DNA of 64,000 bases from positions 725,881 through 789,880 of the forward strand of contig MU001681.1 of NCBI GenBank assembly GCA_010093515.1, in the 5' to 3' direction. Within the stretch, counting starts at the first letter, position 1. Each line of letters begins with the position of its first letter. Position numbers and translations under genes: made by a program. This DNA is from Lineolata rhizophorae (Eukaryota; Ascomycota; Dothideomycetes; Lineolatales; Lineolataceae). This document shows, one piece after another, positions 1 to 50,853 of this stretch. The notes under the pieces were generated by a model. It had not been told where the DNA came from. It ran no database searches and worked only from the letters and a program-made list of their open reading frames with translations.

Positions 1-1833
1 TGCAACCACCCGGACCTCTTCGAGCGCGCCGACACGACTTCTCCCTTGTCGTTTGCGTACTTTGCCGAGACGGCGTCGTTCCTGAGGGAGGGCCAGAACG
101 TCAATCTCGCCTACTCGGTGCGGAACCTCATCGAGTATCGCCTGCCTCGTCTCGTCTACAGCGAGGGCGGGAGGCTGAGCGTCCCAGGCCCGAACAATCC
201 GACCGCGGGCACGAAGTCGAAGTACTTGGATCACCTCATGAACATCTGGTCTGCCGACAACGTCCTCGAGAGCTCCAACAAGGATGGCACCTTCTCGTTC
301 CTGCGGTTTGTCGATCACTCGGCCAGCGAGGCGTCCGCGGCGGGCCGTACCGATGCGTTCCAGCGGGCCGTCCAAATCCGCCAGAGGGAGCAGGAATTCG
401 GTTTGCGCAAGATCGCGTATGACGCCGAGGACGGCATCGAATGTCCCGTTCACGCTATGTTCAACATTGTCGAATGCAGCAACAACCGTCGTCCGCCTGC
501 TGAGATCGCGACCGAGGGACGCATGCGCGAGCTCTACAATGTCGCGAGCACCGCGTACGAAGAGACGGGGCTCCACATACTCGAGGCCGCGGCCGCGCCA
601 GCCGCTTCGGCGCCGCCTATCGAGCTGTTCTGCTCGGACCAGCGCCACAACTTCGAGAAGGAGAACATTCTGTTCAACCGCGGGATGCGTCGGGCGCTCT
701 TCGGCATGTCGGAGCAGATGGAGGAGGCGATTCTAGAGGCTAAGCTGGACCCGGCCACGCTAGCCGTGACGGGGATGCTGCCGCCGCCCGGCCAGCTCAA
801 ATCACGCTACAACCACATCCGGGTGCCGTCGATGCGGCGCTTCGTGACGGACTCGGGCAAGCTGGCGCAGCTGGATGCGCTGCTCAAACAGCTCAAGGAA
901 GGCGGGCATCGGGTCCTGCTCTACTTCCAGATGACGCGCATGATCGACCTGATGGAGGAGTACCTGACGTACCGCAACTACAAGTACTGCCGACTAGATG
1001 GGTCGACGAAGCTGGAGGACCGGCGCGACACGGTCGCGGACTTCCAGACGCGGCCCGAGATCTTCGTGTTCCTGCTGTCGACGCGCGCCGGCGGGCTCGG
1101 CATCAACCTGACGAGCGCCGACACGGTCATCTTCTACGACTCGGACTGGAACCCGACCATCGACAGCCAGGCCATGGACCGGGCGCACCGCCTCGGCCAG
1201 ACGCGCCAGGTGACGGTGTACCGGCTCATCACGCGGGGCACCATCGAGGAGCGGATCCGCAAGCGGGCGCTGCAGAAGGAGGAGGTGCAGCGCGTCGTCA
1301 TCCAGGGCGGGGCGGGCGCCCAGGTCGACTTCAACACGCGCTCGCGCGAGAACAGGACCAAGGACATCGCGCTCTGGCTCGCCGACGACGACCAGGCGGC
1401 GGCCATCGAGCGGAAGGAGGCCGAGATGGCGGAGCAGGAGAAGAACGCGCCGCAGGGGGGCAGGAAGAGGAAGGCGGCTGGTGGTGGTGGCGGTGGCGGG
1501 AGGAAGAAGGCCGATGTCAATTTGGATGATATGTATCACGAGGGTGAGTTCTTTTTTTTTAATTTTTCTTTTTATATCTGCCTATTTTGGTTCAACTCGG
1601 CGCAAGAGGGAAGATGCTAATGCGGCTTTTCTGTCACCATAGGCGAGGGCCACTTCGACGACAACAGCGCCAAGCCGTCGGGCGCGGCGACGCCCGTGTC
1701 GACGGCCGAGGGGGGCCCAACCAAAGGCAGGAAGAAGGGCGGTGCCGGCTTGTCGAAGAAGGCGAAGACGATCAAGCAGAGGTTGGCGATTGCGGACGCC
1801 GAGGGGGATCTGGGCATGGGTGGGGGGGTGTAA
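1..1833 (+). CDS. INO80: INO80 chromatin-remodelling ATPase, C-terminal part (5' end outside window)
   Basis: This is the catalytic ATPase of the INO80 nucleosome-remodelling complex, a nuclear enzyme that slides nucleosomes and exchanges histones. Only the last 577 residues are present. The open frame runs from base 1 ([10 protein letters not shown], the end of the SNF2 N-lobe) to 1543. An intron at 1544-1642 (GTGAGT...CATAG) follows, then a 63-codon last exon (1643-1833). The helicase C-lobe is clear near residues 270-430: [24 protein letters not shown] (motif V) and [12 protein letters not shown] (motif VI). The block [17 protein letters not shown] is characteristic of INO80 rather than SWR1 or ISWI. 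The tail is basic and Gly/Lys-rich. SNF2 subfamily assignment is from memory of the family; the helicase motifs are seen directly. Confidence 0.95.
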
Positions 1834-2684
1834 GATTAGTAGGACCTTGGGAGCTGTGGTCGGTTGAGGGCAGGGAGAGTGAGCGTTGAGGGCGAAGTTT
1901 TGCGCGTGCTCTGGCAAGGGGGAGCGCAAAGGGGAAGAAGGCATCACGCGTTCAGGGCCTTCGTGCCTTGTTACAGTGCTGGCTTCTTTTCTCTGAGGGG
2001 TTCGAGGGAGGTGCTGGTAGTGGCGTGGTTGGCAAGTGTAATCCTCACACCTGTCTTTCGGCAAAACGGGGCGCCTCTGGTGCGGTTCTTTTCCTTTGGT
2101 GTTTCTTCCAACAAAGCATGGTTTTTATTCTGCCCTTCTTTTTTTCTCTGTTGTGTTTTTTTAAGGCATAGCTGGTTTTTTCTTTCTTTTTCTTTTTCCT
2201 TTGCAAGCACAAATGCGCGCGTGCGCGCACGTGGCCTATGGTCGGATGAGGGAAGGATGGTCAGGCACGTTGTCAAGACACAGGCGACATCCATCGCCTG
2301 CTACAGAGTGGTGGTGGTTATCGAGGGTTTGCTTGGTAATTTTTGCGTCGGAGGCTAGAGTGCGTGTCCGAAGAGAGGAAAGAGAGGTTAGTGTGCTGCG
2401 TAGCAAAAGAAGCTTTCTCGGGGAGCATTTTCCATGGCCATTCTGAAGTTGTTTGTTTCTTTCTTTTTCCTTTTTCTAGAAAAAATTAGCCGTAGCTAGG
2501 CTGGATCGGTTATTTGCTTCTTTTTTCCTTTTTTTTTTTCTTTCCCCTGGTTCATGTTATGGCTTAGGGGTGTTGTGTACAATTAGTTCCGGCTTCTTTG
2601 CAGGGTTGCTCTTTTTCTTCCAAGGGAATAGAAAAAGTTTGAGAGCTTGATTATGAAAAGGGGGTCGTGGGGGGGTTTTGGGGG

Positions 2685-2694
2685 NNNNNNNNNN
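2685..2694. other. Assembly gap (10 N) inside a poly-G tract
   Basis: Ten N bases are flanked by G runs on both sides (2680-2684 and 2695-2710). The gap length is probably a fixed placeholder. Reads or scaffolding likely failed at a long G homopolymer, so the real length is unknown. Confidence 0.95.
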
Positions 2695-3321
2695 GGGGGG
2701 GGGGGGGGGGCTGGTTGGTGGTGGTGTAACTGGCTGGATGGGTTTTCGGATTCGGTGGTGCGGAATTGTGCTGTGGCTTTGCGAGTGAAGAGAGATGATG
2801 TGCGGGAATTGTAGGTTGTTAAATAGAAGTAATGGCACCCATGTGTTTTGAACGTTCACGTGGTTTGTGTAGGACTAGGAGAGGGCGCTGCTTACCTTGT
2901 GACCGGGGCACCATCTTTTATGCAGAGGGTCCTGCCCCAAACTTCCGTAGAAACTCGAGCTTCTTTTATTCGTACCGCGACCTATCTTGCCTTCGAGTCG
3001 TGATCCGAGTGAGTTCCACTTTTCAGAGCGACATGCTGACCACTTACTTCCCTCGGCTTAGCTCTATTCCGCATCGTAATAGAGCATCTACCTTCTACCT
3101 TGTAACTTTAACTGCTGTTTAGCTTCTTTTAAAGTTATGTTTAGCTACAATGGTCGAAATTATCAGAGGAGACATATTTTGAGCACTGGAAAGGTTTGGT
3201 TGGAGAAAGCTATTCGCCTATAAAGGGATGAACGCACGGCTGTATCGGATGGAACCTTCGGCCACCTGAGTAGGGCTAAAGGTGACTAGGTGGGGGGGGA
3301 GCATTGATCGTAAATTTATAT

Positions 3322-3342
3322 CTCCGGCACTACGTGCCGGAG
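3322..3342. repeat. Perfect 9-bp hairpin with 3-nt loop
   Basis: CTCCGGCAC, TAC, GTGCCGGAG: the arms are exact reverse complements. It sits in non-coding DNA 489 bp beyond the stop codon of the CDF gene. It could be a terminator-like or transposon-derived palindrome. No flanking terminal repeats were found. Confidence 0.6.
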
Positions 3343-3830
3343 GAGGCCATTGTTGGGAATCGCTTCCTATAGTTACCACCGATTAGTTTACAGCTAATGA
3401 TTTATGCTCGTCCCCTGAATGGCGCTTGCCGGATTCAGTATCTCAAGTACGCCTTGGAACTTAATGCTGGAAGTAGCTATAAGATAGCCATCAATAACAA
3501 GCTTTTGAAAAACTGCAAAACCCCGCATCTCCATTCATCAGTCTATGCCTGTTGGGAGATTGCTTAGGCTCAAAAGTGCATTCGCTTCCGATGTGTACAA
3601 AACCAAAACACCGCATTCAGGAGCTAAATTCCTGGTGTCCTATGTTTCCAAGGTAGGCCACCACAACCATGTACCAACACCGTGCGCTCCGAACCGATGA
3701 ACGTATCTACAAGTCACGAGTCGACCAAAGCAAAGGGCCGCCCCACGGAACCAGTGCAAATCACACAAGTCAGACCAGCCGAGCACCGGAACTCCACCGC
3801 CGTCCCCTATTGCTACTGGAAGAACAACGT

Positions 3831-5815
3831 CTACTCCTCCTCCTGCCTCATATGACTCGGCAAATTCCAGCTCGCGTAATCCTGATGCACAAACGCCCGA
3901 TCGACCATGGGCACGCTCTCGAGCACGTACTGCAGGCTCTCGCCCAAATCGTGGCTGTCCCTCAGGCTGGTGCCCTCGTCCAGGACGATGTCGACCTCGA
4001 CGTTGAGCTTGTCGCCGACGTGGTAGGCCTGCAGGCCCTGGATCTGGCGTATCGTCTTGGCGAAGCGCATCGTCAGATAGAGCAGCACGTTGCGCTCGTC
4101 GGCCGACGCGGCCGCGCCCGACAGGTTGCGGATGTGGGTGAGCGAGGTGCGCGACCAGTTGGCGATGACGTAGAAGGAGAGCGCGATGCCGCCGACGGGG
4201 TCGAACCACCAAACGTTGGCGTAATAGCCGACTGCGGGGAAGCGTGTCTTGTCAGCTGGCCGATCGTGACATGGAACGATGCGGCAAATGTGCAGGAGCC
4301 GGATTAACTTGTCGAAGCGGAGCCCGGTCCGGACTTACTGAGCGGGAAAATGATGCTGAAAATGTTGAACACCACGTCCGTCATGGCGTCCTGCGCGAGC
4401 GCCTGCACGCTCGAGTTCTTGATGAACCGGCACCAGAGCCAGCAGAGGAACTTGACGACGACGGTGGAGGCCATGATGGCGACGGCGGGGATGGTGAGCT
4501 CGACGAGCGTCTCGTCGCCAGACGTGAGGCGCGAGAAGCCCTCGATGGCTACCTGGACGAACGAGGTGATCATGATGATGGAGAAGACGAGCACGCCGAT
4601 GGGCTCGAGCCGGCGGCGGCCCACGGGGTACGCGTACTGGTCGCGGCGCGAGATCATGCGCGTCGTGGTCCAGACGATGGCCGTGGAGAGGAAGTCGAGG
4701 GCGGCGTCGACGAGCGAGGCCAGTACCGAAATGGACGAAGTCAGCACCGTGACGATGATCTTGAGCACGAGCAGGATCGAGTTGGCCGCTAGGTTGATGT
4801 AGATGGCCACCTTAACGATGTTGTCCTGCGAGTCCGTCTCGTCGTCCGGGTCGTACTGCGGGATCTTGGTCAGGTCCTCCTCCTCCCCGCCGTCCTGCTC
4901 GTCGCCTTCCACTTGGCCGAGCAAGGGCGACTGTTCGTCGGGCACTTTGTACAGGTTTCGAGGCGTGCGCTTGACCTTGACGGGAGGCGTGTTGTTGCTG
5001 TTGGCACTCGACGTCTTGTCCACGCTCTTGGTGCTCGTGTTGAACAGCTCCGCGCCATTGAGCTCCGGCGACGACGGCGACGAGTTGCTCGACTCCTCCG
5101 CAATAGTCGGCGGCACGTCGATGCCTTGCTGCGGCTGATTGTACTCCTGGATCAGGCTGTGCGGGATCGACGAGTCGAGCAGCCGATCGATGTAGATGTA
5201 CTGCTGGATTAAGAAGTTGTTCCGCTCGTAGTACTTCCGGATCGGCTTCTTCATCCTGCTCAGCTCCTCGTCCGTCTTGAAGTACTGCGCCCACTTGTAC
5301 CGCGGGTTGCTGTTCCCGATCAGCCGCTGGCTGCGCATCTGCGGCGTCATGAGCACCTGCGCGCCCATGCTTATGCGCCGGTCGTCCCTGTCGCCGCCGC
5401 CCCACGCCGCGCCCAGCCCCAGCGCGCTCGCCTGCCTCCCTCCTATCCCTCCTCCTTCAGACTCCGCGCCGCCAACATCGCCGTTCCCGAACTCCAGCCC
5501 CGCCTCCAGGTCCCCGTGCTCCCCCTCGCTCGCCCAGGGCCCCCTCGCCCTCGTCACCGGCGCGCCTTCGCTCGCGCCCCGTATCGAGCTCGGCCTCCGT
5601 GACACCGCCCTCGCTCCCGCCTGGTGATGCAAGTGCGAAAGATTGGAGCTTGAGAGCGACTGGATGAGCCCTGGCAGCGCTTGGCCACGCGTCGACAGCA
5701 TGGAGCCGCCGGCGGATTCGGAGCCCGGGCCCCCGCCATCCGCGGCGAGCGGAAGGAAGCCTTTCAAGCTGGGGAGGCGGTATGTTCTCGGCGGAGACTC
5801 GTCGTCGGCGGCCAT
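3831..5815 (-). CDS. Cation diffusion facilitator, Mn-type (CDF) metal transporter
   Basis: Two exons (5815-4339 and 4231-3831; intron 4232-4338, GTAAGT...CGCAG) encode 625 residues. A long, low-complexity cytosolic N-terminus of about 330 residues precedes six membrane segments and a C-terminal cytosolic metal-binding domain. The TM2 motif DAALD and the TM5 motif DAMTD are both DxxxD. In CDF classification this points to the Mn-CDF group (plant MTP8-11-like) rather than the Zn group with HxxxD. WWFDPVGGIALS marks TM6, and the C-terminal domain (HVGDKLNVEVDIVLDEGTSL) has the usual CDF ferredoxin-like fold signature. It probably moves Mn2+ out of the cytosol across an endomembrane, in exchange for protons; metal and location are inferred. 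The ATG at 5815 is the first in frame and opens a continuous exon. Confidence 0.92.
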
Positions 5816-40833: not shown

Positions 40834-43800
40834 TCACAGCCCCAGCGCCTCATTCCCAACAAAGTGCGATCCACCCGCGCACCTATACCCACTCCGTTGC
40901 TTTATCCACCGGAACCCCACCGGACACACACCCATGTGCCTCAACTTCGCCTGCGCCTCCGCCTCCTTTTTCCGCCGCGCTTCCTCCTCCTTCCTCTTCC
41001 TCTCCAACTCCCTAAGCAGCTCCTCCCGCTCCCGCGCCTCGATCTCGCGCCGTATGCGCTCGCGCTCCAGTTCGCGCAGCGCCTCCTCGTCTTCGTGCCG
41101 CTGCTGCTCTTGCTGCTCCTGCTGCTGCCGCGCTGCCGCTTCCTCCTCTTTCTGCCGCGCTTCGTCTAGCGCGGCTTGCACGGCGCGTAGGGACTCTTGC
41201 TCGTCGCGCAGACGGGAGAGGAGCATGGCGTGGGCAAGTGAGCGCGAAGACTGGGCGGCCATGTCGGACTGCAGCTGCTGCCAGGTGGCGTCATCGACGC
41301 CGGCATCGCGAGGTGTGGTAGACTCCTGGAGGTTAGGAGGAGGGTCACAGTTCTCTGGTGGCGGCGGCCAGTTTTGAGACTCCTGGTTCTGCGTTGTGGA
41401 TGTGCTGATCGTTGTCGTTGTTGGGGGACGAGATGGGGTGTGCGAGTCCGCTTGCATGGGTTGGCTTTGGACAGCTTCGCTGCGGAATCCTGTTTGTTTC
41501 CGGTTGCTACGTTCGCTGATCATCGCGTCCACTTCTATCAGAATATACTCTTTGGTCAGACCAGAAGACGTGGGCCTTGGGGCCTTCAGCACCGCGCGGT
41601 ATATGTTCTGGACCAGTGTCTTCACGTCTCTAGCGTTTCCCCAGGATGGTTGCCTAGCCAGCTCCGCAAACCGCCCAATGAGCTCTGCACGTAAAGAATC
41701 CGCCATGGGATCTAAGATCGATGTATCGATCTTCTTCTTTCTAAATGCCTGCACGAACAGCGTCAAACACTCTTCCGGTCTCATGTGGTTGAAAGTCACT
41801 GTCTCGGGAAATCGACTGGTCAGTCCGGGGTTAGTAGCCATGAGCCTGTTAATATCCTCATCGTAACCGGCCAAAATAACGACGAGTTTGCGGGCATAGT
41901 GCTCCTTTGTTAGAGAGTCCACCAGCTCATCCATGGCTTCCTGAGCAAAGTGGCCTTCGGCGAGCCGGTAAGCCTCGTCGATGAAGAGGACTTTGCCTAG
42001 GGCCTTGTCAAGCTGCTGCCGCGTCTTTGGTCCTGTCTGGCCAATGTATTGGGCGACAAGGTCGGATGAAGAACATTCTACGACCTCGGCCGTCGCGAGG
42101 AACCCCATGTCGTAGTAGATCTTTCCCATTTTGCGAGCTGTCGTTGTTTTGCCCGTGCCTACAGCCGAATTAGTTCCAGCCTACAGCAACGTAATTGAGG
42201 GGGTGAAGAAACGCGTAAAATAAAAGATAGAAAACGTCTTCATACCTGGCGGCCCGCGGAAGAGGAAGCTGAAAGGAATTTCCTCCCTAGGATCCTCGCC
42301 GATTTCCTTCAGCCGTGCCACTATCTTTTGGTAACCCTCGAACTTTTCGACTACATCCTCACACCCTACAATGTCTCTGAAAAGCAGCCGGCAATTCGTC
42401 ACAGCCCTTTCTGCGCGGTCAAAATCTTCGTCAAAGTCCTTGGCCTCGAAGGTATCGAACTTGGTGGTCTCGTTAGCCATCAGGCGAGTTTGATGAACAG
42501 CTTTAGCTTTGTCGAGAAGAATGTCGATTTCCCCTGCATTTCCAAAGTTTGGCCTGTTCCTAGCTCGCCGAAGGACTTCGAGTGCTACCCTCTTCCCTTG
42601 GTCAGTTACTTTGAATTGGATCTTGTTAAGCTTCAAATCCAAGATCTCCAAAAGTTCATCGTCTGAAAAGTCTTCAAAGTTGAAAGCGGAGGCGATCGGA
42701 AACCTTCGGGAGAGACCCGGGTTCACGTTGCGGAACATTTCTTCCATTTGGTCCTTGTAGCCGAGAAGAAGCACGCAGCGATCATCGCCTGGGTTACTTT
42801 GCACTTCCGCGACAATGGTGTCGATTACGGCTGTCTTGTACGGGTCAGATGCTGCCCAGCCCGCCCCAGCATTGCTGTTGTAGAGCATGTAGGCTTCGTC
42901 AATAACAAGAACTTTTCCTTGTGTTGCTGCTAATATTCCCTTAGTAGTTTCTTCTGATTGTCCAAGGGCACCACCAACAAAGTCCGCTGGATTTTTCACG
43001 ACGACTATCCGATGATGTTAATTTCACTCTCTTAGCCGGCGTTCAGGGTGCCCACATACCTTCCCCGTTTGACAGGAGCCCGAGATCTGCAAGAATTGCT
43101 CCGTAGAGTTTAGCTACGGACGTCTTTCCAGTGCCAGGAGATCCAATAAAGACCCGATTGAGCGAAAACTCCACGATGACCTTTTCTTCTAGCTCTCGCT
43201 GGTAGTTAAGCTTGATAGTTTCAAGCAGGACCCTAACAGAATGTTTGACAGCACTGAGTCCAGTAAGACTCTGGAGCGTCGTAAGGGCAGGCATGTCCTT
43301 GAGAGCGGTTGATGGGTCTGGGCCGATGATATCTTCCTTAGTGAAAAGATAGTCGTCAGGCTGTTTTCCAGCCCTTCTTTCCAACACTAGCCTCCGAGAC
43401 TGGCGCTCAGACATACGCTGGAATGCGTTCTGCATTGCTCTGGCGTTACCAAAACCGTTCCGGCCTCGACCGCGGCCAACTCGCCTAGCAGCAATTCGAA
43501 TGTAAAGCCCACGCAATCCCCCTTCTACTTTCATAGAATTGCGGTATTTCTTCTTAATCAAACCGCCAAGAATTTCAGCCAGTTCTTTGTCTTCATAGTC
43601 TGGAAACTGTATTGATTGCGGAATGCGACTGGGAATCCCGGGATTGTGGGCAAATAATTTCTCCATTTGCTTGTTGTATCCGGCCAAAATGAATACGACC
43701 TTGCCAGTAAGATTTTCCATTTCTGCCAGAAGGAAGTCGAGAACTTGAGCTCCGCCATAGCTTGTACCGGAGACGAGCTGGTATGCCTCGTCAATGAAAA

Positions 43801-46800
43801 TCGCACCTCCGCCATTTTTCACAATATCCTCGATATGCTTCTTACACCCGGACACTCCATCGTTGGCAAGTCGGGAACCAGACGTTTCAATAAACTCATT
43901 TCCTGGGATAGCACCAACAGATGCTAGGAAGTCCCCATACAAACGAGCAACGGTAGTTTTCCCTTTCGCAAGTTATTTTGTCAAAAGGCCATGCTTACAA
44001 GATGCACACATCAGATAACTTACCGGTACCGGGATTGCCAAGAAAGGCAGCTCCAAACCGTTCGTCCTTAAGACTGATGCGTTGCCTGATGGTTGTGTCA
44101 ATTGTGGCCTTGATGTCCAAGAATTTCTGTTTGACGTCTTCTAAGCCTATCATATTCATTAGGACGTCCATCGCATCGTTTGATGCGCCTTCAAACTCTT
44201 TTTGACGTTCCCATTCGTCGTACGCGCTTGAGCATAAGAAATTTGGAGTCTCATCTGTCACCGGTGAACTGGTAGAAGCAACGTTGCTAGACGCTGAGGT
44301 GTTGTGCGAGCGTGTTTTGTTTGCCCCGAAAGTCGTAGATGGCTCCGATACCTGTTCCCGAGCAATAGGAGGAGTATTGTTAGCGCGACGTTTGGAAACT
44401 GCTTCTTTGGCCTTCGCAAGGTCCGCTTTGCGCTGGGCCATCGTCTTAACCCTGTCTTGCTGATCATCCTCCTCTTTCAGAAGCCGACGTTGGAATTCTA
44501 TTTCTTCCTGTATTTCTGCGAGTTCATTGGCATATGCCCGCTGCCTTTCCTGCCTCCTCTGCTCGAGCTCCATTTCCTTTTTCAATCTAGCTTCGCGAGC
44601 TTTCTGCTCGGCCTCGCATTTCTGACATGTCGGCCCTTTGTTGACACCGCATTTCCGATACATTTTGTGCCCCTTTGGGCAAGTAAACTCAAGCGGGACT
44701 TGACACTCAATTTTCGAGTGGTCCACGATTTGATGACAACGCTGTGGGCATGCGTGGACATTGCAATTCAGCAGTTTGGTGCTGCACGAGTAAAATGGTC
44801 AGAGTGCTAACAGCATGTGAAAAGCCTCGAGTATGCACTAGCATCAGCTTACCACTGTTCGGAGCATCCTCCATCGGGACATTCTGAATCGAACTGCTCC
44901 TTCCTCTCGATTAAGACCTTCCGGTCCGGATGTCGCTCACATTGGAGCGGGAAGCCATTGAAAATGCAGTTGTTGGATTTGAGGTGGTTAAAGAATTTTG
45001 ACCAGAGATCTTTGCCCTTTTTGCTTTGAATGAGCGTTTTCGAGTTTCCCATCATAATAAGCCCATTTCGTGACCTTGAGACGAGGACGTTTAGCCTTTG
45101 CGGAGCCGCCATGAATCCGATCTCTCCGCTTTCATTGCTACGAGTTAAGGTCGCAATCACAATGTTGCTCTCCTCTCCCTGGTAATTATCTACAATTAAT
45201 TAGCGAATATAGGCGAAACAAATGCGACAAATAAATCATGCACATACCAATGGTTGAAATGCGGATCGGTCGTTTGGCCACGTTAGCACTACCGGCTGGC
45301 ATGAGCCCAGCGCGAACGAGGTCGTAAGAATCGAGATCGTCCAAATAGGGATCATTCTCCTTTTTGAGGACGGTGTAGAGAAGTCGCAGTTGTCCCAAGT
45401 ACGGCGTCAAAACAACAATGTCGTCTGTTCTGTAGCCCTGTTGCCCCAGATAACGCACACACTTCAAGATCATTTCCGCCTCGAAGAGGTTTTCCTTGCT
45501 TGACTTCGCCCCTTCGTCGCGATGGTCTGCAATTCTCTGGAAATTGTTTTCCATGTATTCGTGATTAAAAAAAACGATCTTGTTCTGGAAGCCGCGTAGT
45601 CTCGGTCGATTCTTAACTGATGGTGCGTCTTGTAGGTTAGGATACGTCAACAGCCTTGGAATTGACGATATTTCGGGGCACATTCGGTGTTGCTTTACAA
45701 GCGTCTGGTGAGGAAATCCAGAAAGAACCAATCTTTCAAACAGTGAGCAATTGAGATTGTACCCTAATCCCTTCTCAATAGTGAGGTTATAATTGTTGAC
45801 CTTTGGACGCAACTGCTTGTGATCACCAATGAGAATCAACTGCTTGGTTTCATCTGTGATGGAAGCAAGAACGTGGCTTTCAAGAATTTCTCCAGCTTCT
45901 TCGACCATGATGATTCCAGGCGCTGCTGTCTGAAGAGTGCGAAAGTATTTCGAAGCTCCGGTTGTTGTACATCCAATAATTCGTTTATTCTTCAGAACTT
46001 CGGTGCGTTTCTGGCCACGGACTATCTCATATTCTGACTGCGACTTCTGATATCGCCTCATGCATTCCAAAAAGGAGTTGGCACGCTCTCGGAGGATCTC
46101 AGTTTCCCACGTTGATGAACGGGAAAGACGCGCGTCCTTGCTCATGTTCCAGACGTTCGGGTATTTAGAACGCACATCCGTTTTAAAGACACCACCATCA
46201 CTACCTGAAATCCATCTAGAGTAGAGATAATTCGGCCCCAGGCGCTTGCCTCTATGATCCACGACAGTCATTCCATCAGAGGTTTCTGGTATCTGAAGAG
46301 CGCTGTGGAATTCCGAGTCCTCTGAGTGAAACTCAAGGTGTAACATGAGTTCTTCGTAGGAAATTTGACTGTGGCAAAAAGCCTTCGCGGCTCTAACTAG
46401 AGGCTGATTGTGGAGTTCTGTCTCGGTTTCTAGAAGCGTCACGGCGGCGAATGAATCCCGAGTTCTCTTAATCTGCGCTGCTTGCTCGTAGAGATTCAAA
46501 TGCTTCGTTGCCGGAGTGCTCTTCGACCCAAGCCGAACCATGGCATCGCTCGGTACGCCGATTTTCATAATGTCTTGGAGAAATTGATCCAGGGCGTGAT
46601 TGGTGTAGCAAAGGACGAGGATCTTTTCGCGGCAATGGTCAACTAGCGCCTTTGCTATAAGGGCACCAATGAAGGATTTGCCGGTTCCTAACGAAGGATA
46701 TTTAGCACGTCAATTTGAGAGATTGGAACCGCTCTTGACTGCCCACCTGGAGGCCCTTGGATGTTGCAGACACGATTTCTCAACCCCTCTATGAGGGCAG

Positions 46801-48214
46801 ACTTCTGAGACGAGTCTAGCACAACTGAGGTACTGCACCCTAGGAGTGGCCCGACATCATCATCGGGACAAGATTCGATGCTCTGGATTAAGTGACTCAG
46901 GGGAACGGGAGATTCTGCCGATCTATTTTGGTTGGAGGAGGGCCACAACTCTTCGGCCAAGGGCATTGCCGTTTTCTCTTGCAAACACTTCAGCACTGGC
47001 TCGTAGGCGAAAATTGCAGTATCAACCTGAACAAAGCTGAAAGCAGTTCCTCGTCTCTTTGCGGCTAGCAGTGTTGCCAAGCGACGCTGTTCGCCGTCGA
47101 TGTACAATACGAGGACCGGCTTGTCATCCAGAAGTTTATCTTCCATTCTATCGACTGTAACGAAGGCGATAGGATTGGCATTTTCCATCAAACAGCCGGC
47201 TGATTGATGCTTCAGGAAAGACTTGTTTTCATCAAGAAATTTCTTTCTCTCAGCTCGAGATCGACGTCTGAGTTCAGGTAGGCCTCCGTAGAACTTGAAA
47301 GCAAACCTTGGAGGCCTCCAATTTGGAGATGAGCCGCATTCAACGCCGACCAAAGTGAGACCGTTGAGTATTCGTCCAGAGGGTCTTCTAGCAGTTTTCC
47401 CCATCGCAATTTGAAGATCAGATTTGAGTTCTTCAAGCATGTCCTCTCTTGTAAGCCTGAACTGGTTGTCTAGATGGATTGCCAAACGAGCTTCGGGGTC
47501 AGCGTCGTCGACATCAGTAGCTCTGCGATAAAACGCCCTCTCTTGAGAGACTAGTTCGTCCGGAGTCGGGAGGATTGAGATTTGCCGAAAGTCTTCGAAA
47601 TCATTATCGTGTCTCCCGCCAGGATGGAAGTACCCCAGTTGAGTTACATTACTGCCAGATGAGGTCGTCTTGAGGACATGTCTGATCTTGTGGCCGAAGT
47701 TCCGAGTTTCCGAGCAATCCGAGTTCAAAAATGACGCGTTTGCCGTTACTCGTTCAGCCACCTGGCGTGAATTTGTTGGCACATCGAGAGGGGAAGAAAT
47801 CAAGAAAAGCAGAAGTTGGGCGAAAGCTCGAGTGGTAGCAGAGTCCAGGTGATCTTCCCCATGCGCATTGACAAGTGCGTCCCAGAACGTCGGGGGTTCC
47901 ATGACCACTTCTATGGCCTTTCTGAGAAATGAACCGCCACAGATATCCCTTAAGTCAGGCACCATGAGGAATCTGAGGAAGTCGCCGGCCGAAGTGTTTA
48001 GGAATCCATAGGAAACGTCGACTCTGACGGCTTTGCCCAGTGCGTTCACTCCTTCGGGCTTGGCCATAATCTTTTCCAGACATTGTGATGGCTCGTTTTG
48101 GACACTAATCGACTGTATGAACAATTTTGCATCGAAGGAGTTTTGGACCTTGCGCTTTCCATAGAGCACTGCCCAAAAGAGCTTGGATAGTTGATCGCGA
48201 CGGGACTGATCCAT
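40834..48214 (-). CDS. Giant ZNFX1-like SF1 helicase fused to three CbbX/SpoVK-type AAA+ ATPase modules
   Basis: Seven exons: 48214-46747, 46687-45248, 45189-44853, 44781-44024, 43962-43060, 43004-42246 and 42158-40834, 2329 residues. The N-terminal 480 residues precede an UPF1-like helicase: GPPGTGKS (about 487), MVEEAGEILESH (motif II, about 750), IGDHKQLRP, KQHRMCPEI, TIDNYQGEESNIVI and RLNVLVSRSRNG. This is close to ZNFX1 and S. pombe Hrr1. A short Cys/His region (ECPDGGCSEQWC..., CNVHACPQRCHQIVDHSKIEC) and a long coiled coil follow. Then three AAA+ modules: GNPGTGKT with IFIDEAYQL, GSPGTGKT with LVIDEAYML, GPPGTGKT with LFIDEAYRL. All Walker A and B residues are intact. The protein ends in a 90-residue Glu/Arg coiled coil and a small CPVGFRW...YRCAGGSHF module. 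ZNFX1-type helicases act in RNA silencing and RNA-virus sensing; the AAA+ role is unknown. Confidence 0.92.
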
Positions 48215-49355: not shown

Positions 49356-50853
49356 ATGGACCAACGGGGTAATGAGAACTTCAGACCCTACCGTGGGCGA
49401 CGGGGTTGGAACAGCGCATCATGGCGTATCGAGCGCGGCGCTCGGCAACATGACACGCCACGCGGGGGCAGCTGGATATCTCCAGAGCCAACGGTGGACC
49501 CCAAACCTTACGGGCCTCTTCTAAAATCGATCACGATTGAAGACCTCGACAAGGAGGCGCAGGAATCGGAGTCCATCACCTCCATAAAGAACTGCATATA
49601 CGCTGCGTCCTACAGCTGGCTCGAGAAAAGCGATCCCGGCATAGTCGTTCCTGGTTAGCATATCACTTCCAACGATTCAACTGATCTCTAACGCGATGAC
49701 AGGCAAACCTCCAACATGGACGCCTTTAAAAGGGAGTCACAAAATACCACAAGACAACGGCGAATACTTCCGCGACAAGAACAGCGCCAGGTATCCGAAA
49801 TATCCAATGGAGCCGGCAGTTCAGAGCGTCTTGAAGATGAACCAGGGATTCCAAACCAACGAAGTCGACGTCTTCGGATGTTCGAGCACTATCGGAAACC
49901 TTCTACACTTCGCACGGTCAAACCCGAAATCGTTCCGCATGCTAGTAGAGGCAGTCGGGGACACTGTCTTTTTCCTTCGCCAGGAAAATTCGCCCAGAGA
50001 GCTCATCCCAAACGTGAAGGGTTGTGGCCACACATTTCCTGAAGCGTACACGACTTGGGACAGTGACGTCAAGGGGTCTGCCTGTCATGCACGGATCGTC
50101 AAATACCAGCTTGGTGGAATGACCTTCCTTGTCCGTTTCGGGTGCGATGGATACATACGGGAATACGCAGAGGCTGGTCAACATCAGAAACTTGGTGAAC
50201 CCAAAAAGGGGGGAATCACTGCGGAGGTCCTCGATCAGTCTGACCTCTTGGGTGATCCAGAGTCGCTCGCGATAAGCAGCAAAAATGCCCCAGGACCCGG
50301 ACCGCTCGCCATTTCTAGTGCTGGCAAAATCATCCCACAACACGCCATCTTTGACCTGAAAACAAGGCTACAGGGGAAACAAGTCAGAATGGAAGATTTA
50401 CTTCCCCGGCTTTGGATTTCGCAAATTCCCAACCTCATCACTGCGTATCATCGCTGGGGCGAATTCAATGATGCAGAGATTCACGTCGAGAGTGTTGAAG
50501 ACCGAGTTCGAGAATGGAAAAAAGAAAACGAGGTTGGACTTGAGAAGTTTGTCAGGCTCCTTCGCAAGGTTGTCGAGATCGCAAGAGCACGAAAAGACGG
50601 AAAGATCGAAATTTGCCGAACGGAAGATGGCGCTCTTGAAATACGAGCGCCGGCGGATGCTGATCGCGACGTGCTCCCGGAGCCTTTGAAGAAGATATGG
50701 TCGCAGAAGCTGCCGCCGAGTGATGCGCTTAAGCCCAAAAGGGATGAAGAGGGCGCTGATACTAAACCTGAGAACGATGAGGAAGACAATGAGCCCGATT
50801 ACACCGCTTGCTCTGCAGAAGGGTGTGGTTACTGCGGTCAATGTACGTACTAA
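49356..50853 (+). CDS. Conserved fungal protein of unknown function with RG-rich N-terminus and Cys cluster
   Basis: Two exons (49356-49653 and 49703-50853; donor GTTAGC, acceptor GACAG), 482 residues. The N-terminus is Arg/Gly-rich (NFRPYRGRRGWNSASW), like RGG-type RNA-binding tails. A conserved core of about 200 residues follows: KPPTWTPL, DNGEYFRDKNSARYPKYPME, VDVFGCSSTIGNLLHFAR, VGDTVFFLRQENSPRELI and GCGHTFPEAYTTWD. A second conserved block is LLPRLWISQIPNLITAYHRW. The C-terminus is acidic and ends CSAEGCGYCGQC, a possible Zn-binding C-x4-C-x2-C-x2-C knuckle. As I recall, relatives are often labelled geranylgeranyl pyrophosphate synthetase in fungal genomes. No DDxxD prenyl-synthase motif pair is visible, so that label looks wrong. 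It is divergent from the giant helicase gene, and a shared role in RNA metabolism is conjecture. Confidence 0.85.

What the first reader, a model, noticed from the sequence alone, without database searches (positions are those of the whole stretch)
40834..48214. Giant ZNFX1-like helicase fused to three intact CbbX/SpoVK AAA+ modules
One 2329-aa reading frame (seven exons) joins an UPF1/ZNFX1-type RNA helicase, a small Cys/His segment, coiled coils and three AAA+ modules, each with intact Walker A and Walker B (IDEAY). ZNFX1-type proteins in animals and Hrr1 in S. pombe act in RNA silencing and RNA-virus sensing. CbbX/SpoVK modules usually remodel protein complexes as hexamers. One polypeptide with four ATPase engines could sense RNA and then remodel a partner, a plausible antiviral or genome-defence machine.
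Basis: partly seen in the sequence, partly recalled or inferred. Interest (0 to 1): 0.8.

Follow-up and report, generated by a model that had tools for sequence, protein, structure and literature searches.

The report
RNA helicase fused to triple AAA+ motor
This fungal gene encodes one giant protein that joins an RNA helicase of the kind used in antiviral defence and gene silencing to three linked ATP-driven protein-remodelling modules; the same unstudied protein occurs in many filamentous fungi with its motor residues preserved.

Summary
A minus-strand gene at 48214..40834 (seven exons, six GT-AG introns) encodes 2329 aa: N-terminal region, ZNFX1-type SF1 helicase, Cys/His block, coiled-coil-like stretches, three CbbX-type AAA+ modules and a conserved Cys/His C-tail. 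The fusion is real: 120 of 120 listed relatives, mostly filamentous ascomycetes by name, carry helicase, AAA1, AAA2 and AAA3 in that order. AAA Walker lysine, Walker B acids and arginine finger are kept in 118-120 of 120.

Refinements: (1) It is a ZNFX1-class paralogue; the genome holds a ZNFX1-domain helicase and an RZ-finger helicase locus elsewhere. (2) The AAA modules are unequal: only AAA3 regularly keeps an aromatic pore-loop residue, and AAA2 lacks the sensor-2 arginine. (3) The 3xCbbX module plus tail also occurs without helicase, and bacteria carry tandem CbbX proteins. (4) The likely Neurospora orthologue, NCU09357, is induced during conidiation.

Antiviral or genome-defence function is plausible but untested. 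I rate it a new variant of a known kind. No structure could be predicted (tool not ready).

The parts
40834..48214 (-). whole gene: 7 exons, 6 introns, 2329 aa
   Evidence: spliced translation; relatives
46747..48214 (-). exon 1 (aa 1-489 and part of codon 490): N-terminal region and start of the helicase
46688..46746 (-). intron 1 (59 nt), inside the helicase Walker A
45248..46687 (-). exon 2: helicase
45190..45247 (-). intron 2 (58 nt)
44853..45189 (-). exon 3: helicase end and start of Cys/His block
44782..44852 (-). intron 3 (71 nt)
44024..44781 (-). exon 4: Cys/His block, coiled-coil-like stretch, start of AAA1
43963..44023 (-). intron 4 (61 nt), inside the AAA1 Walker A
43060..43962 (-). 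exon 5: AAA1 and start of AAA2
43005..43059 (-). intron 5 (55 nt)
42246..43004 (-). exon 6: AAA2 and start of AAA3
42159..42245 (-). intron 6 (87 nt), inside the AAA3 Walker A
40834..42158 (-). exon 7: AAA3, charged stretch, C-tail, stop
47552..47623 (-). GGRHDNDFEDFR motif (aa 198-221), strongly conserved; weakly aligned to ZNFX1
   Evidence: alignment A2; 9.8-bit local match; coordinates
44978..46834 (-). ZNFX1-type SF1 helicase (aa 461-1040)
   Evidence: Pfam; PDB ZNFX1 9q9z; coordinates
44592..44935 (-). Cys/His block (aa 1055-1145), aligned with ZNFX1 zinc-finger region
   Evidence: coordinates
44382..44591 (-). charged coiled-coil-like stretch (aa 1146-1215), composition only
   Evidence: coordinates
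43286..44150 (-). AAA1 (aa 1293-1560), CbbX type, non-aromatic pore loop
   Evidence: coordinates
42391..43240 (-). AAA2 (aa 1576-1840), CbbX type, non-aromatic pore loop, no sensor-2 Arg
   Evidence: coordinates
41494..42375 (-). AAA3 (aa 1846-2110), CbbX type, aromatic pore loop QYIGQ
   Evidence: coordinates
40939..41226 (-). charged coiled-coil-like stretch (aa 2200-2295; 68% E/K/R/D/Q over 2201-2295), composition only
   Evidence: coordinates
40864..40926 (-). conserved C-tail C-x2-G-F-x-W...G-Y-R-C-A-G-G-S-H (aa 2300-2320)
   Evidence: coordinates

Best explanation
It is a ZNFX1-class RNA helicase whose C-terminal effector is a tandem three-module CbbX-type AAA+ remodelling motor, where ZNFX1 carries an RZ-finger (ubiquitin-ligase type) end. 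Shown: one polypeptide by gene model and relatives, four intact ATPase sites under strong conservation, and a pore-loop aromatic kept regularly only in AAA3. Inferred: the helicase and Cys/His block bind RNA; two chains pair, so that two times three AAA modules close a six-membered ring; AAA3 grips and pulls a protein partner on the RNA (a ribonucleoprotein coat, or an RdRP or Argonaute complex), while AAA1 and AAA2 provide ATP-driven ring motion without gripping. RNA engagement licenses the pull. The most likely use is surveillance of aberrant or selfish RNA alongside RNA silencing.
For: Architecture and order conserved in 120 of 120 listed relatives. Catalytic residues conserved. AAA1 (65%) and AAA2 (69%) are more conserved than the helicase (54%), which argues against decaying add-ons. 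Aromatic pore residue in AAA3 in 163/163 helicase-bearing proteins with that column; AAA1 is Gly in 163/165; AAA2 is Val or Ala in 143/163. Helicase best match ZNFX1 9q9z; AAA best match CbbX. The helicase of relative P0001 also matches the bacterial defence helicase MkoA (235.5 bits); Mokosh is described as degrading viral transcripts (PMC11291487, passages). The genome has Argonaute, RdRP and Dicer-like matches. ZNFX1 relatives act in silencing and RNA-virus response (PMC9276528, passages).
Against: No functional, RNA-binding or ring data. The likely orthologue NCU09357 is induced in conidiation (PMC6468284), which fits development equally well. Single copy here and broad conservation look like housekeeping. 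Pairing into a hexamer is guessed from recalled CbbX knowledge, and no structure could be modelled. Nine of 163 helicase-bearing proteins have Tyr in the AAA2 pore position. Helicase-free relatives suggest that the AAA module does not need the helicase. PMC11291487 also says that eukaryotic defence homologues of MkoA lie elsewhere in the MkoA tree.
Confidence: 0.36

Rival explanations
1. A developmental or housekeeping mRNP remodeller: it strips or sorts proteins on host mRNAs during conidiation and sexual development, without any defence role.
For: NCU09357 (called stage V sporulation protein K) is expressed late in conidiation and is lower in the ada-6 deletion (PMC6468284, passages); it is cited as a late conidial gene in PMC11708020 (passages). 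Single copy here and broad conservation.
Against: NCU09357 is listed among rapidly evolving sex-associated genes beside QDE-2 and an RdRP (PMC3571971, passage), although the excess was significant only on the N. intermedia branch. ZNFX1-class relatives are silencing or immune factors.
Confidence: 0.3
2. The AAA array is an ATP-gated switch or scaffold rather than a pulling motor: nucleotide state in AAA1-AAA3 changes shape and exposes the C-tail or coiled coils to a partner, somewhat as ATP binding to the AAA core activates RNF213.
For: AAA1 and AAA2 mostly lack aromatic pore residues yet are the most conserved AAA modules. AAA2 lacks the sensor-2 Arg in 120 of 120. The tail is 68% identical to relatives and close to the C-terminus. 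RNF213 activation by ATP binding is from an abstract in a search listing (PMC12075652).
Against: Walker B Glu and arginine fingers are intact in all three modules, which suggests hydrolysis, not mere binding. AAA3 keeps the aromatic loop.
Confidence: 0.22
3. A fungal sensor family comparable to NLRs: the 3xCbbX-tail module is a shared signalling or effector part combined with different sensors, of which the ZNFX1 helicase is the commonest.
For: Helicase-less 3xCbbX proteins are named from both Ascomycota and Basidiomycota, and 34 of them split over 11 maximal clades in a tree of 137; their N-termini differ, and one has C-terminal CCCH fingers (P0224). Bacteria hold tandem CbbX proteins with differing N-termini.
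Against: Most alternative N-termini looked at appear disordered or have no Pfam domain, and some may be wrong gene models; three of the 11 clades rest on such doubtful models (P0132, P0139, P0133 with P0136). No effector activity is known.
Confidence: 0.2
4. Artefact: two separate genes or a broken gene joined by the reader.
For: Seven exons and no RNA-seq here.
Against: 120 of 120 listed relatives carry the fusion, among them P0022, P0042 and P0048 from contigs of 9.7-15 kb. Five junctions match nearly all 120 relatives, and the third matches the ten viewed.
Confidence: 0.02

Closest known systems
ZNFX1 (PDB 9q9z; species not shown by the call)
   Same: Helicase core, the start of the zinc-finger region and a short pre-helicase stretch (9.8 bits) align
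   Different: No PF25396 ZNFX1 domain and no RZ finger found; a 3xCbbX array follows instead
SAD-3 / Hrr1 / RnhA silencing helicases
   Same: ZNFX1-class helicase; a likely SAD-3-like paralogue (L027) lies elsewhere in this genome
   Different: Those proteins are 999-1231 aa (PMC5384783), with no AAA array mentioned in the passages read; NCU09357 lies outside their cluster in that paper
N. crassa NCU09357
   Same: Annotated as stage V sporulation protein K in one paper and as ATPase, DNA/RNA helicase in another, so it is very likely the orthologue (inferred)
   Different: Sequence not fetched, so not compared here
CbbX, SpoVK, EccA AAA+ proteins
   Same: AAA core and AAA_lid_6; best PDB matches CbbX and EccA1
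   Different: Three divergent modules in one chain, two without the aromatic pore residue, fused to a helicase
Bacterial tandem CbbX proteins (e.g. L030, L031, L033, L034)
   Same: Head-to-tail CbbX modules in one chain: 14 of 21 bacterial ORFs examined have three or four Walker A matches
   Different: About 30% identity; no helicase noticed by eye in the seven ORFs printed (not scanned); fungal AAA1, AAA2 and AAA3 each form their own group
Mokosh MkoA helicase
   Same: Helicase region of relative P0001 matches PDLC03920 (E 3.5e-70)
   Different: AAA array is not part of that match; no MkoB partner was sought
RNF213
   Same: Giant multi-AAA immune protein that shares the RZ finger with ZNFX1 (PMC11959080)
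   Different: No sequence comparison with RNF213 made; RZ finger not found here

Membership tests
ZNFX1 family | ZNFX1-type SF1 helicase core | tested here: met
   9q9z 283.7 bits versus 115.3 for UPF1
ZNFX1 family | Pfam ZNFX1 domain PF25396 | tested here: not met
   no match (E<=0.01; first 434 aa); found only at C25 (L027)
ZNFX1 family | C-terminal RZ-type zinc finger PF20173 | tested here: not met
   no match; the only RZ match in the genome is at C1 (L026)
ZNFX1 family | NFX1-type zinc fingers | tested here: inconclusive
   Cys/His block aligns with the ZNFX1 zinc region but Pfam names none
ZNFX1 family | N-terminal armadillo-type fold | not tested
   structure tool took no jobs
CbbX/SpoVK-type AAA+ | AAA core with Walker A, Walker B and arginine finger | tested here: met
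   three modules
CbbX/SpoVK-type AAA+ | AAA_lid_6 lid | tested here: met
   PF17866, 58 bits, two stretches
CbbX/SpoVK-type AAA+ | aromatic pore-loop residue in each module | tested here: not met
   AAA3 only in this protein; the pore-loop assignment is recalled from CbbX
CbbX/SpoVK-type AAA+ | hexameric ring | not testable with these tools
   no model obtained
SpoVK equivalog (TIGR02881) | score over the curated cut-off | tested here: inconclusive
   window protein not scanned; relatives P0001 (433.9) and P0216 (439.3) pass the 422.95 cut-off, P0294 and P0258 do not; three matched stretches each, so the pass probably reflects adding up copies
SAD-3/Hrr1 orthologue | closest ZNFX1-domain helicase of the genome, SAD-3-like size | tested here: inconclusive
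   L027 (1364-aa frame, PF25396, 375.7 bits to 9q9z) fits better than the window gene; SAD-3 and Hrr1 sequences not fetched

The most novel reading that the evidence does not exclude
The 3xCbbX array plus its Cys/His C-tail is an ancient, swappable effector motor of fungal RNA immunity: a tandem AAA+ ring that different sensors plug into, with the ZNFX1 helicase as the dominant RNA sensor. It would be a remodelling counterpart to ZNFX1's ubiquitin-ligase arm, in a combination whose named hits are all fungal.
Probability: 0.2. Interest if true: 0.85.

Novelty: new variant of a known kind. Interest (0 to 1): 0.58.

Why it matters
ZNFX1-class helicases guard animal cells against RNA viruses and sustain silencing in worms and fission yeast, but what they do to the RNA-protein complexes they find is still being worked out. 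Many filamentous fungi keep a version welded to a three-part protein-remodelling motor, two parts of which are better conserved than the helicase itself. If it works on silencing or viral RNA, it gives a genetically easy handle (one gene, likely NCU09357 in Neurospora) on how an RNA sensor hands over to a protein machine. It also flags a misleading database name, since some of these proteins are called stage V sporulation protein K.

Tried and rejected
Structure prediction: five attempts were not accepted because the tool was not ready; no fold search was possible.

RZ-finger reading of the C-tail: the tail looks faintly like an RZ finger, but Pfam gives no PF20173 match at E<=10 (its filters drop most weak matches); not claimed.

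Exophiala HMPREF1120_08154 (PMC7835796), a radiation-induced 'SpoVK-family' ATPase, looked like a relative but the paper calls it a YTA12 homologue; rejected. The Magnaporthe MGG_11779 'ZNFX1' (PMC11091397) could not be assigned to one of the three paralogues.

TPR reading of the N-termini of P0195 and P0216: seen by eye, no TPR among the Pfam families shown (best 25 of 27 and of 37); not claimed.

Genomic neighbours: nine of the 20 long ORFs listed were scanned; six gave ordinary genes, two no match, one only a match below its cut-off. No silencing gene among these nine.

Literature: ten searches ran; none of the listings showed a paper that describes this fusion. The library is open-access only and the lists were capped. 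Of the papers cited I saw passages found by term or an abstract in a listing (PMC12075652), none whole. Grabarczyk et al. 2025, titled as ZNFX1 ubiquitinating and clustering single-stranded RNA, was seen only as a reference-list entry in PMC13061254.
Full report
Gene. The finding lies on the minus strand of a 31-Mb, 48-contig assembly. Stop-to-stop frames joined at six GT-AG introns give a 2329-aa protein with no internal stop. Introns 1, 4 and 6 cut the P-loops of the helicase, AAA1 and AAA3, so three of the four Walker A motifs are complete only after splicing. Mean identity to relatives within ten residues of the junctions is 61-86%. At five junctions 0-5 of 120 relatives show an insertion and 1-2 a gap; at junction 3, 116 and 119 do, but the ten relatives viewed there have equal length.

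Domains. Pfam gives AAA_11, AAA_12, three AAA stretches and AAA_lid_6. Against the PDB, residues 1-1137 match ZNFX1 9q9z best (283.7 bits; UPF1 115.3), in three pieces: a weak pre-helicase piece (9.8 bits), the Walker A region (44.7) and the helicase running on into the zinc region (221.0). The triple-AAA piece matches CbbX (130.7 bits) and EccA1 (114.9 bits) best. The first 434 residues have no Pfam match at E<=10, with the caveat that the filters drop most weak matches. Sixteen Cys or His positions between alignment columns 1190 and 1275 are at least 90% conserved in a 49-row alignment whose first row is exon 1 only.

Relatives. A search with the full protein found 1239 proteins at E<=0.001 among 7992 scored; the 120 listed are 47-58% identical over the aligned part, which is the whole query for most but 45% and 57% of it in two. 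Those with species names are filamentous ascomycetes (my reading of the names) except one basidiomycete (Botryobasidium, P0115). One search listed further proteins with helicase and AAA domains from fungi that I know as basidiomycetes, for example Somion (P0241), Marasmius (P0244), Mycena (P0248) and Suillus (P0257). In the 120, helicase, AAA1, AAA2 and AAA3 are present and in order in 120; 113 also have N-terminus, zinc block and tail by my half-coverage rule, 5 miss the zinc block and 2 the tail. These are the best scorers and were filtered by length, so this does not measure how often the fusion is lost.

Conservation. In the 120, Walker Lys, Walker B Asp and Glu and arginine-finger Arg are 120/120 in AAA1 and AAA2; in AAA3 they are 119, 118, 119 and 119. 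The helicase Walker Lys is 118/120 and its motif II Glu-Glu 119/120. AAA2 has Gly where AAA1 and AAA3 have the sensor-2 Arg, in 119/120, and Ser in one. Mean identity to the window protein: AAA2 0.687, tail 0.675, AAA1 0.654, AAA3 0.565, helicase 0.536, zinc block 0.488, N-terminus 0.402, linkers 0.30-0.33. Among all 303 proteins fetched, 165 bear the helicase by my rule; in these the pore-loop position is Tyr or Phe in 163/163 for AAA3, Gly in 163/165 for AAA1, and Val or Ala in 143/163 for AAA2, with Tyr in 9. In 36 hand-picked helicase-less proteins the arginine fingers are looser: AAA1 28/35, AAA2 35/36, AAA3 22/35; there the AAA3 pore position is Tyr or Phe in 33/36. The pore-loop position is assigned from recalled CbbX knowledge.

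Paralogues. A six-frame search of the own genome with the triple-AAA piece finds only this gene and one weak hit, to what looks like an ordinary AAA protein by its frame; the tail is found only here. Two other ZNFX1-class helicases exist. L027 (C25) has a single 1364-aa frame, the PF25396 ZNFX1 domain and 375.7 bits to 9q9z, and fits SAD-3/Hrr1. L026 (C1) has 9q9z as best PDB match and an RZ finger (86.2 bits). That the L026 RZ frame and helicase frame are one gene is inferred from position and strand. RZ and PF25396 each match once in the genome.

Silencing machinery. Piwi matches lie at three places, RdRP at three, and RNase III pairs at two (Dicer-like, inferred) plus one single. This permits but does not prove a link. 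No control was made against fungi that lack RNA silencing.

The AAA module by itself. Of 303 proteins, 138 lack the helicase by my rule, but many of these are fragments. Of them 34 picked by eye were put in a tree of 137 (midpoint root) and fell into 11 maximal helicase-less clades, the largest of 12 (support 1.0). Three of the 11 rest on doubtful gene models (P0132; P0139; P0133 with P0136). The N-termini looked at are mostly disordered or unnamed; P0224 has C-terminal CCCH fingers.

Origin. Of 21 bacterial ORFs examined, 14 have three or four Walker A matches in tandem; the two viral ORFs have one each. In a tree of 77 modules (36 fungal, 41 bacterial) the fungal AAA1, AAA2 and AAA3 each group together (1.0, 1.0, 0.85); backbone supports run from 0.317 to 0.946, so their relation to the bacterial modules is open. 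The triplication therefore predates the fungal spread of the family; descent from a bacterial tandem protein is possible but not shown.

Name and literature. NCBIfam SpoVK (TIGR02881) exceeds its cut-off in P0001 and P0216, with three matched stretches each, but not in P0294 and P0258; adding up copies probably explains the database name. N. crassa NCU09357 is called stage V sporulation protein K (PMC6468284) and ATPase, DNA/RNA helicase (PMC3571971), so it is very likely the orthologue. It rises late in conidiation and is lower in the ada-6 deletion, and it appears in a table of rapidly evolving sex-associated genes beside QDE-2 and an RdRP, significant on one branch only. In PMC5384783 it is the first N. 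[quoted passage not shown] None of the ten search listings showed a paper on the fusion.

Mechanism. Best supported is an RNA-licensed protein remodeller; RNA binding, the ring, the gripping role of AAA3 and the silencing context are inferred. Rivals are a developmental mRNP remodeller, an ATP-gated switch, and a swappable sensor family.

Noticed in passing
L026 (G000:C1:2082500-2089500, - strand): A ZNFX1-class helicase locus with an RZ-type zinc finger frame, the only RZ match in this fungal genome: apparently an animal-like ZNFX1 architecture in a fungus, if the two frames are one gene.
   Followed up: partly
L027 (G000:C25, locus 1629-5720, - strand): Single-frame 1364-aa ZNFX1-domain helicase, likely the SAD-3/Hrr1 counterpart.
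   Followed up: partly
window 46688-46746, 43963-44023, 42159-42245: Three of the six introns interrupt Walker A P-loop codons (helicase, AAA1, AAA3).
   Followed up: no
L029-L044 (bacterial contigs): Unnamed bacterial proteins with three or four Walker A motifs in tandem; L031 has a long N-terminus that looks like Sel1 repeats (by eye).
   Followed up: partly
window 40864-40926: Extreme C-tail with strongly conserved C, G, W, K, Q, G, Y, R, C, G, H positions and only three possible metal ligands; also present in many helicase-less relatives.
   Followed up: partly
window protein aa 1009 (exon 3): Helicase motif VI has Ser where all 120 listed relatives have Ala.
   Followed up: no
window 49645-50853 (+): Divergent neighbour frame of 402 aa with no Pfam match over its cut-off.
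   Followed up: no
fungal database names: The stage V sporulation protein K label on some of these proteins probably comes from adding the scores of three AAA copies.
   Followed up: partly
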